Shown here one piece after another: positions 19,046 through 61,489 of a stretch of DNA of 64,000 nt. The position numbers and the translations under genes are program-made. Origin of the DNA: Rhizobium sp. NLR16a (GTDB taxonomy: Bacteria > Pseudomonadota > Alphaproteobacteria > Rhizobiales > Rhizobiaceae); contig NZ_CP072869.1 of the NCBI RefSeq assembly GCF_017948245.1, positions 340,136 through 404,135 of the forward strand, in the 5' to 3' direction. The notes under the pieces were generated by a model that saw only the letters and a list, made by a program, of their open reading frames with translations, searched no databases and had not been told where the DNA came from. The first letter of the stretch is position 1, and each line of letters starts with the position of its first letter.

Positions 19046-19364
19046 ATGACATCACCTGACCTGACTCTCGATGAGAATGATCCCGGTGACGACGTAGCCG
19101 CGCGGTTCGAGTATCAATACTCGTACGCGGCAATAAACGCCATTCGCCTTGTTACCGGCAAGGCGGACTTTGACGAGGTCATTTGCGAAAGCCACGAAGA
19201 CTTCCTTCTGAAAAGGAGCGACGGCAAGTTCATCGGCACGCAGATCAAGACGCGAAACATCACGCGCCCTCCGTTCAAGGCGAGAGAAGCGCAAGTCATC
19301 CGGGCCCTCGCGAAATTCTGCGTACTCGACAAGAAGTTTCCCGATAGCTTCCATGGTTTCGATT
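19046..19364 (+). pseudogene. 5' part of a Cap4/DUF4297-NACHT-TPR gene, cut by IS66
   Basis: This 106-codon piece begins MTSPDLTLDENDPGDD and encodes the first half of a DUF4297 (Cap4-type) DNA endonuclease domain. Catalytic-type residues of the D/E-QxK nuclease fold are visible in ESHEDFLLKRSDGK and GTQIKTRN. The frame runs into the IS66 end at 19365 after FHGFD. The remainder of the same gene lies at 61481-57124 on the other strand. Both junctions carry TTTCGATT, and joining them at one copy gives 4677 bp, exactly 1559 codons including stop, reading FHGFDFTTNHYFWENEE across the junction. A TTG three codons earlier (19037) is an alternative start. Confidence 0.85.
19357..19364. repeat. IS66 target-site duplication, left copy (TTTCGATT)
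   Basis: The eight bases TTTCGATT abut the GTAACC terminus of IS66 copy 1. The same eight bases, in the matching orientation, abut the opposite IS66 terminus at 61482-61489. IS66 elements typically generate 8-bp duplications. The base run on the other side of copy 1 (TATCAAAA from 22174) does not match. Confidence 0.9.
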
Positions 19365-19379
19365 GTAACCGCCCGATTG

Positions 19380-19676
19380 CTACCGCCGAGATTTTGCTTT
19401 GATGCGAGCGACGAGCAGCTCGTCGTCAACAAAGCTGTCGAGGAAGTCGTCCCATTCTTGGGGTGAGCGGCGGGCGTCTTTGAGCATCTGCTCCAATTCG
19501 TCCATGCCGTCGTCTGTCAGTGCGGTCACGGATTCGTCGTCTCCGGTGTACACGGAGATGATGCTGCCGTAGCTCAGATTATCATCGTTGGAGACGATTG
19601 CCTGAAGAAGCTCCGGGTCCTCTTCGAGAATTTCGGCAACAAATTTGATCGTACGGACGTAGGTGACTGCCGCCAT
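19380..19676 (-). CDS. IS66 accessory protein of unknown function
   Basis: The 98-residue product begins MAAVTYVRTIKFVAEILEED and is acidic, with SIISVYTGDDES in the centre. The ATG overlaps the tnpC stop (TGATG), and the gene ends 15 bp from the element terminus, so it is an integral part of the element. Small ORFs of this kind occur at the 3' end of some IS66 elements; their role is unknown. An upstream in-frame start inside tnpC is less likely. Confidence 0.7.
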   Translation of the reverse strand: MAAVTYVRTIKFVAEILEEDPELLQAIVSNDDNLSYGSIISVYTGDDESVTALTDDGMDELEQMLKDARRSPQEWDDFLDSFVDDELLVARIKAKSRR

Positions 19677-60100: not shown

Positions 60101-61481
60101 ACGAAGCGCCGATAGAGTTCGCTGCGTCGATACGGCAACTCCCCTTCTTTTCGAAAAACGCTGGCCGCGATCGTGACCAACAAAGGGGTTCCGCCCAGTT
60201 CCGCACTCGTTGTCTTCCTAAATGCCTCCAGGAAGTCCTCGCAATCCTCGCCGAGCCAGGCCTGCGCCAGTCGCCGCTGCTGGGCGTCGTCGAAAGGGCG
60301 CAGTTCCAGCGTACTGAAGTTTGGTCTCGCCGCGATGGGAAGGGCGTTCGGGCGTGAACTCAGCACAAGCTTGTTGCCGTCTCGCGCCAGGTCGAGCATC
60401 CATTCCAGCGTTTCGGCCGCAACTTCCGCCCCAACCTCGTCATAGCCGTCTATCAGGAACAGCCAGGGCGCGCCGGTTGCTTCCGGCCACTGCCGAAGAA
60501 AGCCCGGCGGCGGTCTCGATCCAATGGTCAGCTCCCTCGGTTCGGTCTTTGCGAGGGCCGACCACAGGCGGTCCTCCAGGGCCACGCCCTTGGCTTCGGC
60601 AAGGAAGCGCATCTTGATCGGGAAGGCGATGTGTTTGCGCTCCAATCCAAGTTGCGCAGGATCCGTCCATGCGCAACGGGCCATCTCCCGAAGTATGGTA
60701 GACTTGCCGGAGCCGGGGCCCCCCTCGACAAGGAGGCTTCGACCATCGGCTAGGAGCGTTGCTCCGGTTCCAATCTCGATATCGGTCCCGGCCCCCCCAT
60801 CTCGCTGCCTTCCCGTAACGGGAACGTAGATCTTCGCAGCGGCTTCGAAAGCGAAGTCGCCAAGAGAATACGACCTGCTGTTGTAGGAAGACAACGACTC
60901 GGCGTAGGAGAACAGAGACTCTGAGAAGGAGCGCTTGGATTTCTCCGCGAGGAGAGTCTCGAAAATGTCGAGCGTCGTCTTCGCGTGACCGCCATCTTCG
61001 GGTGCGGTTTTGCACCGATCGATCACCGCAAGCACGTCGGCTTTGCGGATTCGCTTCCCGGCGATGAGCTGGTCGCTATGAGCCCGCGTCAAATCGGACC
61101 CCGGCATGAACAGGTCGGTAATTGGTCCCCGAAGCGTCTTGCCCGACGCATCCCTGGCAAGTTGGATGACCGCCTCTGCAATCGCGTCAACCACCCGATG
61201 GGATAGCTCAGTCACGCCGGGATACTCACACAGTGCTTTCTTCACCGCCTCGCCGATATGCGTGATTTCCGAATTATGACCTCGAATGGTGGTCCTCGCC
61301 AACGTTCTCGCAACGTCCGACGCGCTGAGCTCTACTTGCCTTGCGAGCTGTTCGACGAACTGGCGCGCCGGGTGATGGCCAGGCAGTCCATGGATACCGT
61401 CAGGCTCTTGGAGGGTCTGCAAGAGCCATCGAAGATTGTTTACAGATTCCTCATTTTCCCAGAAATAATGGTTCGTGGTGA
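57124..61481 (-). pseudogene. Main part of a Cap4/DUF4297-NACHT-TPR gene, separated from its 5' end by IS66 and an inversion
   Basis: The frame is open from the IS66 end at 61489 to a stop at 57124, about 1454 residues. It has no native start: the first possible codon is a TTG at 61422. Its first residues FTTNHYFWENEESVNNLRWL complete the nuclease domain begun at 19046. In the rejoined 1558-residue protein a NACHT-type NTPase follows: Walker A LLVEGGPGSGKSTIL near 365 and Walker B WLFLIDGYDEVG near 450, with the DGYDE pattern of NLR-like proteins, then VLSSRPNALP. The C-terminal half holds HEAT- or TPR-like helical repeats (for example HAHCLELVGLDDEALQMYVE). This layout is that of antiviral STAND/bNACHT defence proteins. 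Confidence 0.87.
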
Positions 61482-61489
61482 AATCGAAA
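61482..61489. repeat. IS66 target-site duplication, right copy
   Basis: On the plus strand the bases are AATCGAAA, the reverse complement of TTTCGATT at 19357-19364. They abut the tnpA-side terminus of IS66 copy 2. Pairing the tnpC-side end of copy 1 with the tnpA-side end of copy 2 restores a normal 8-bp duplication. Confidence 0.9.

What the first reader, a model, noticed from the sequence alone, without database searches (positions are those of the whole stretch)
19046..61489. One defence gene split across 42 kb by IS66 insertion and inversion
The 5' piece at 19046-19364 (plus strand) and the body at 61481-57124 (minus strand) belong to one gene. Three independent signs agree. TTTCGATT abuts the tnpC-side IS66 end at 19357-19364, and the same eight bases abut the tnpA-side IS66 end at 61482-61489. 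Joining at one copy gives 4677 bp, exactly 1559 codons, with no stop. The junction reads FHGFD then FTTNHYFWENEE, a sensible continuation of a DUF4297 nuclease domain. The two IS66 copies are inverted and look identical, so homologous recombination between them would invert 22174-61489. Separate annotation of the pieces would give a truncated DUF4297 protein and a starting-codon-less NACHT protein.
Basis: partly seen in the sequence, partly recalled or inferred. Interest (0 to 1): 0.92.

Follow-up and report, generated by a model that had tools for sequence, protein, structure and literature searches.

The report
Nuclease-NLR defence gene split by IS66
On a Rhizobium plasmid, one probable anti-phage gene (a Lamassu-type nuclease fused to an immune-receptor-like ATPase) was cut by a jumping element, and its two pieces now lie 42 kb apart and face opposite ways because the DNA between two copies of that element appears to have flipped.

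Summary
In detail: TTTCGATT abuts both IS66 copies, the pieces are in register (319 + 4358 bp = 1559 codons), and the copies are identical. Three results go further. (1) The outer end of the second IS66 lies at the other end of the contig; its flank TTTTGATA is the partner of TATCAAAA beside the first copy. Both 8-bp duplications are thus cross-paired, while a chromosomal copy has a direct pair. (2) In Methylocystis parvus one uninterrupted Lamassu nuclease gene (lmuA) spans the junction. (3) R. binae plasmid p4 has the second site without IS66. The gene was a chimera: about 265 residues of LmuA-like Cap4/DUF4297 nuclease, then a NACHT-TPR protein whose homologues lack the nuclease. No other such fusion, and no uninterrupted copy, turned up in my searches. 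The gene is very probably dead; flipping back would not repair it because IS66 stays inside. Recombination between two IS66 insertions is the likeliest route; one-step replicative transposition, or mis-assembly through the identical copies, would look the same and is not excluded.

The parts
19046..19364 (+). 5' piece: codons 1-106 and the first base of codon 107 of the nuclease domain (Cap4/DUF4297), with the native ATG
   Evidence: Pfam Cap4_nuclease profile 1-90 of 200, E 3e-15; 67% identical to M. parvus LmuA residues 2-104
19357..19364 (.). 8-bp duplication TTTCGATT, copy 1 of the first insertion
19365..22173 (-). IS66 copy L, 2809 bp (ORFs 19676-21313, 21362-21709, 21706-22074, all minus)
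   Evidence: identical to the copy at C1:3612833-3615641; plasmid relatives are annotated as IS66 transposase and TnpB
22174..22181 (.). 8-bp duplication TATCAAAA, copy 1 of the second insertion (partner TTTTGATA at C5:578-585, outside the window)
22174..61489 (.). 39,316-bp segment inverted relative to the inferred ancestral arrangement
   Evidence: crossed duplications; split lmuA-like gene; second site in R. binae p4
60994..61481 (-). rest of the nuclease domain (body residues 1 to about 162), now without its start codon
   Evidence: 63% identical to LmuA residues 103-262, E 6e-60
57124..61481 (-). body of the split gene: end of nuclease domain, NACHT, TPRs, stop
   Evidence: open frame of 1464 codons
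60250..60738 (-). NACHT domain (body residues 248-410)
   Evidence: Pfam PF05729, E 4e-12, 46.7 bits against cut-off 26.7
57901..58086 (-). TPR region (body residues about 1132-1193)
   Evidence: Pfam TPR_2 and TPR_19, narrowly above cut-off
61482..61489 (.). 8-bp duplication AATCGAAA, copy 2 of the first insertion
61490..63848 (+). IS66 copy R, first 2359 bp; the other end is at C5:123-577
63849..64000 (.). end piece (152 bp) of a three-integrase (RIT-type) element inserted in IS66 R; the contig ends here

Best explanation
A single gene of 1558 codons plus stop encoded an N-terminal Cap4 nuclease of the Lamassu LmuA kind (about 265 residues), a NACHT ATPase and a TPR-containing C-terminal part. 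By analogy with NACHT/STAND defence proteins, phage sensing by the C-terminal part would drive NACHT oligomerisation and switch on the nuclease (inferred, not tested). One IS66 inserted at codon 107 and duplicated TTTCGATT. A second IS66, in opposite orientation, inserted 39 kb away next to IS6 remnants and duplicated TTTTGATA. Recombination between the two identical copies inverted the DNA between them. This left a 5' fragment of the nuclease and a body without its start, so the gene is very probably dead. Re-inversion alone cannot restore it.
For: Both duplications cross-paired, no direct pair at either copy, and a direct pair GATTTTCC at the chromosomal copy as control. At E <= 1e-8 LmuA matches two places of this genome, residues 2-106 at the 5' piece and 103-264 at the body. 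At DNA level 19079-19362 and 61489-61019 meet in one M. parvus gene with 6 bp overlap; the protein runs FEGFD-L-TTNH there against FHGFD-F-TTNH here. A second, more distant lmuA (L015) also spans the junction. R. binae p4 has C5:578-640 next to window 22175-22735 without IS66. IS copies identical.
Against: No uninterrupted copy of the fused gene was found, so the ancestral state is inferred. Neither Pfam Cap4 nor the PADLOC LmuA models matched the start of the body; that link rests on the M. parvus and G144 alignments. Two other routes give the same final sequence. The second crossed duplication is read across the contig's end and start, and there the contig breaks inside IS66 R at a copy of a repeated element that lacks its 3150-bp core, a sign that the assembly may be imperfect. 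No function was tested.
Confidence: 0.68

Rival explanations
1. One IS66 sat in the gene and made the inversion in a single step by intramolecular replicative transposition into the IS6 remnant, leaving two inverted copies and the same crossed duplications.
For: The expected end product is the same as the observed one by my own derivation. A review of the IS6 family states that intramolecular replicative transposition gives deletion or inversion depending on the attacking ends (PMC7986276, passages). The copies are identical.
Against: That passage concerns IS6-family elements. For IS66 I saw only listings (15 of 21 papers, 8 of 21) and opened none of them, so the IS66 pathway stays open here. 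The chromosomal copy shows a simple insertion with a direct duplication.
Confidence: 0.2
2. The gene is interrupted by IS66, but the inversion is an assembly error: a path through two identical 2.8-kb inverted copies was taken the wrong way.
For: Such an error would give the same crossed duplications. The contig ends within a repeated element whose 3150-bp core, present in two other copies, is missing between the ends. A protein identical to the body from its TTG on is held from contigs of at most 39,578 bp, close to the 39,316-bp segment, which suggests that another assembly broke at both IS66 copies.
Against: 8 contigs for 6.58 Mb suggests, but does not prove, reads long enough to span 2.8 kb.
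Confidence: 0.1
3. The pieces are two unrelated genes, a small Cap4 protein and a separate NACHT protein, beside IS66 copies by coincidence.
For: Homologues P0005-P0009 of the NACHT-TPR part lack the nuclease.
Against: They start to align only at body residue 157-163; the roughly 160 residues before are LmuA-like and lack a native start, and the first 104 LmuA residues are at the other IS66. Crossed duplications have a chance of about 6e-10.
Confidence: 0.02

Closest known systems
Lamassu (Cap4 type), LmuA of Methylocystis parvus pMpar-1 (WP_016922041.1)
   Same: Nuclease domain 62-67% identical over LmuA residues 2-264
   Different: LmuA residues beyond about 265 are replaced by NACHT-TPR; no LmuB or LmuC match in the window or in C5:1-12000 (the rest of C5 was not tested)
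Bacterial NACHT (NLR-related) antiphage proteins
   Same: N-terminal effector, central NACHT, C-terminal sensor, as that architecture is described in PMC10952713 (passages)
   Different: Effector is an LmuA-type nuclease; the closest NACHT-TPR relatives P0005-P0009 have no nuclease; the gene is broken
IS-mediated inversion between inverted IS copies (known kind, recalled)
   Same: Inverted identical IS copies with exchanged duplications
   Different: It separates the two halves of one gene; the second copy is itself interrupted by a three-integrase element
Avs (STAND) nucleases (recalled)
   Same: STAND-type ATPase with an N-terminal nuclease (recalled)
   Different: No Avs model among the PADLOC hits of either piece at E <= 0.1

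Membership tests
Lamassu | LmuA effector with N-terminal enzymatic domain | tested here: met
   PADLOC LmuA models hit the 5' piece, best E 6e-9, though none hits the body; 62-67% identity to a PADLOC-positive LmuA
Lamassu | LmuA C-terminal (docking) part | tested here: not met
   Alignment to LmuA stops at residues 262-271 of 415
Lamassu | Adjacent SMC-like LmuB (and LmuC) | tested here: not met
   tblastn of M. parvus LmuB and LmuC: no match in window or C5:1-12000 at 1e-5, while both matched the two other lmuA loci tested, L029 and L030
Bacterial NACHT/STAND defence protein | NACHT ATPase domain | tested here: met
   PF05729 E 4e-12, above cut-off
Bacterial NACHT/STAND defence protein | N-terminal effector in the same protein | tested here: inconclusive
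   Present before the break by inference; now on two pieces
Bacterial NACHT/STAND defence protein | C-terminal sensor repeats | tested here: met
   TPR_2 (30 against 27 bits) and TPR_19 (26.1 against 25) narrowly above cut-off
Bacterial NACHT/STAND defence protein | Protection against phage | not testable with these tools
   needs plaque assays
Avs | Match to Avs models | tested here: not met
   No Avs model in PADLOC hits at E <= 0.1
IS66 | Inverted ends, three ORFs, 8-bp duplication | tested here: met
   GTAACCGCCCGATTG at both ends and three ORFs, direct 8-bp pair at the chromosomal copy, relatives annotated as IS66; the ORFs themselves were not run against a family library

The most novel reading that the evidence does not exclude
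Before the break this was a natural transplant: a Lamassu LmuA nuclease cut out of its SMC-based system at about residue 265 and fused in frame to a rare NACHT-TPR protein that otherwise occurs without it, giving a one-gene nuclease-NLR. Sensor-effector swapping between SMC-type and NLR-type immunity would thus be caught at nearly residue resolution.
Probability: 0.6. Interest if true: 0.55.

Novelty: new variant of a known kind. Interest (0 to 1): 0.42.

Why it matters
Automatic annotation would be expected to list a short Cap4 fragment and, 42 kb away, a NACHT protein with a wrong start, and so miss both the gene and its loss. The case shows how crossed target duplications plus an uninterrupted gene from a relative can reassign a split gene. 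The inferred chimera is a specific, checkable example of modular exchange between Lamassu and NLR-like immunity.

Tried and rejected
Full-length relatives: none. P0002 in 148 genomes of the genus: 5 with a match, own genome included; the other four match 105 to 375 residues of it. Alignment A1 in 394 (family) and 397 (order) genomes, overlapping sets, at E <= 1e-20: own genome only in each. Protein search: 8 hits among 7997 scored candidates; A1 was built from P0002 plus 5 of those 8 (P0004, the window's own protein, and P0010 and P0011, which match the NACHT region, left out). Body residues 1-175 against long proteins: 1 hit, the own protein, among 647 candidates. Genome contigs with A1: 1 relative of 58 stretches, Microvirga vignae. 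Plasmids with the body: 50 records, 30 listed; the two M. parvus records match the nuclease part, the other 28 listed match only the NACHT region at 23-28% identity. Viral contigs: none. 18500-19364 in 148 genus genomes: own, and one other that stops at 18824, before the gene. Solved structures: none for LmuA at 0.01 or the body at 0.001.

Phase-variation switch: rejected, since re-inversion leaves IS66 inside the gene.

GC skew as a test of orientation: the contig leans slightly to G (cumulative +1843) and the segment is near zero (-0.0011), but single 10-kb bins range from -0.036 to +0.051, so I draw nothing from it.

A shortened NACHT-TPR protein from an internal start (first in-frame ATG 105 codons after the TTG at 61422): possible, not testable here.

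Papers: (12 of 100 and 3 of 3 papers listed) gave titles only; none was opened.

Structure prediction: not run; the body exceeds the size limit and the pieces would not decide between the rivals.

Full report
The window is G000:C5:340136-404135 and ends at the end of contig C5 (404,135 bp) of a 6.58-Mb genome in 8 contigs. Plasmid records similar to 18000-24000 are Rhizobium in 88 and Sinorhizobium in 79 of 202, and to 22174-42000 in 116 and 98 of 251; I take the host to be a Rhizobium, species unnamed.

IS66. The left copy is 19365-22173, 2809 bp, with ends GTAACCGCCCGATTG. It is identical to a copy on contig C1 (4.06 Mb; 2809 of 2809 bp). The right copy starts at 61490 on the opposite strand, is identical for 2359 of 2359 bp up to 63848, and its other end is at C5:123-577 (455 of 455 bp), that is, across the end and start of the contig. 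Between lie 274 bp, with a 5-bp overlap ACGGC.

Crossed duplications. Left copy: TTTCGATT ... TATCAAAA. Right copy: AATCGAAA ... TTTTGATA. Neither copy has a direct pair; the outer flank of each copy matches the inner flank of the other as reverse complement. The C1 copy has GATTTTCC on both sides. Random 8-mers match this way in 47 of 2,000,000 draws.

The gene. The 5' piece matches Pfam Cap4_nuclease positions 1-90 of 200 (E 3e-15); the body has NACHT (E 4e-12) and TPRs narrowly above cut-off. The start of the body hit neither Pfam Cap4 nor PADLOC LmuA. The piece lengths, 319 and 4358 bp, sum to 1559 codons. tblastn of the body against plasmids found Methylocystis parvus pMpar-1, 'dsDNA nuclease domain-containing protein', 63% identical over body residues 1-157. 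It matches PADLOC LmuA over residues 8-409 of 415, and the next two genes match LmuC and LmuB. At DNA level the window's 19079-19362 and 61489-61019 align to L019:7716-7996 and 7991-8461, adjacent and overlapping by 6 bp, as expected for one gene with an 8-bp duplication. Searched against the own genome at E <= 1e-8, this LmuA gives two matches, residues 2-106 and 103-264. A more distant LmuA in another Rhizobium-genus genome (G144; one ORF of 418 aa) also spans the junction, 44% and 28% identity. It lies before LmuC- and LmuB-like genes, as does the lmuA of G616. So the cut is inside one nuclease domain. The likely PD-(D/E)xK signature (ED ... QIK) is on the 5' piece; this motif reading is by eye and from memory.

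The fusion. LmuA similarity ends at about body residue 160. From residue 157-163 on, the body aligns with P0005-P0009 (34-64% identity), which have only 21-34 residues of their own before that point; 4 of these 5 carry RDIIAK there. A Microvirga vignae homologue (37%) likewise has no nuclease, and none of the five neighbouring ORFs tested there (of 42 listed) had a Pfam nuclease match. Body residues 1-175 found no other long protein. LmuA-type matches at E <= 1e-8 occur in 3 of 148 genus genomes and 2 of 397 order genomes, own genome in both counts; among these matches the open frame exceeds 433 codons only in the own genome. Sensitivity is limited (shared 5-residue words; one genome per species in the genome searches), so 'no other' means none in these searches. 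Paper searches for NACHT + DUF4297 + phage gave 0, and NACHT + Cap4 + phage + nuclease gave one review, without such a fusion in the passages I saw. A review says that LmuA has variable C-terminal domains that possibly dock to the other components (PMC10586767, passages); another paper describes fusion of interchangeable modules across defence systems (PMC12799240, passages).

The second site. In R. binae p4 (NZ_CP071608.1) window 22820-56692 is present at 99.5-99.9% identity, with about 188 bp more near window 43368; the two p4 stretches that I fetched have no DNA match to the defence gene. There L020:12317-12378 matches C5:578-640 (95%, minus) and L020:12372-12936 matches window 22175-22735 (97%), overlapping by 7 bp, with no IS66 between. 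The two flanks that now sit 39 kb apart are thus neighbours in a relative, as the inversion predicts. Against R. binae this small unit (with IS6 remnants) is itself flipped next to 22820; I take that as a separate event that does not affect the argument.

How it came about. Recombination between two independent IS66 insertions explains all of this. One-step replicative intramolecular transposition would leave the same sequence (my derivation; inversion by that route is described for IS6-family elements in PMC7986276, passages). A mis-assembly through the identical copies would too. In its favour: the contig is broken exactly where two other copies of the inserted element hold a 3150-bp core. 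That core carries three overlapping ORFs with phage-integrase domains, so I call the element a RIT (recombinase in trio; name recalled), and the third copy may be complete in reality. P0004, identical to the body from its TTG on, stands for 11 member sequences on 2 contigs, the longest 39,578 bp. That is about the length of the inverted segment and suggests another assembly broken at both IS66 copies; it says nothing on orientation.

Function. If the ancestral protein worked like other NACHT/STAND effectors, the C-terminal part sensed infection, NACHT oligomerised and the nuclease cut DNA. This is inference. Now the 5' ORF runs 12 residues beyond codon 106 into the IS before a stop, and the body's first possible start is the TTG at its residue 20. 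A working product is unlikely.

Verdict. The finding is true and the reading is right in substance. As a rearrangement it is ordinary in kind but well documented; the chimeric gene is the more interesting part.

Noticed in passing
63849-64000 and L009:1-122; fuller copies C5:133630-137031 and C5:211652-215075: Element of about 3.4 kb with three overlapping integrase ORFs (RIT-type, name recalled). The two fuller copies differ at 1 of 3402 bp. The copy in IS66 R lacks the 3150-bp core exactly at the contig ends, so the contig may not be truly closed there.
   Followed up: partly
22175-22819 and L009:578-944: Remnants of an IS6-family element; relative to R. binae p4 the unit next to 22820 is inverted.
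   Followed up: partly
16452-18809: ORF whose residues 62-785 are 70% identical to a 1025-aa S. numidicum DEAD/DEAH-box helicase family protein encoded next to an AbiV gene; apparently cut at its 5' end by a DDE transposase gene at 15431-16561.
   Followed up: partly
36233-40671 and 12946-15083: DUF6088/AbiEii-like pair followed by a UvrD helicase with GajB-like PADLOC hits; a second pair has only sub-cut-off Pfam matches but is annotated as AbiEi-type and nucleotidyltransferase in plasmid relatives.
   Followed up: partly
G000:C5:44100-45362: RepA 98.8% identical to that of R. binae p4, so the two plasmids seem to share a replication system as well as window 22820-56692.
   Followed up: no
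43368: R. binae p4 has about 188 bp here that the window lacks, within an otherwise 99.9% identical stretch.
   Followed up: no
9636-11322: A 73% inverted repeat of 676 bp formed by two divergent ORFs; relatives are annotated with two GntR-type regulators in this stretch.
   Followed up: no
G000:C5:224775-224984: A 210-bp end fragment of the same IS66 element.
   Followed up: no
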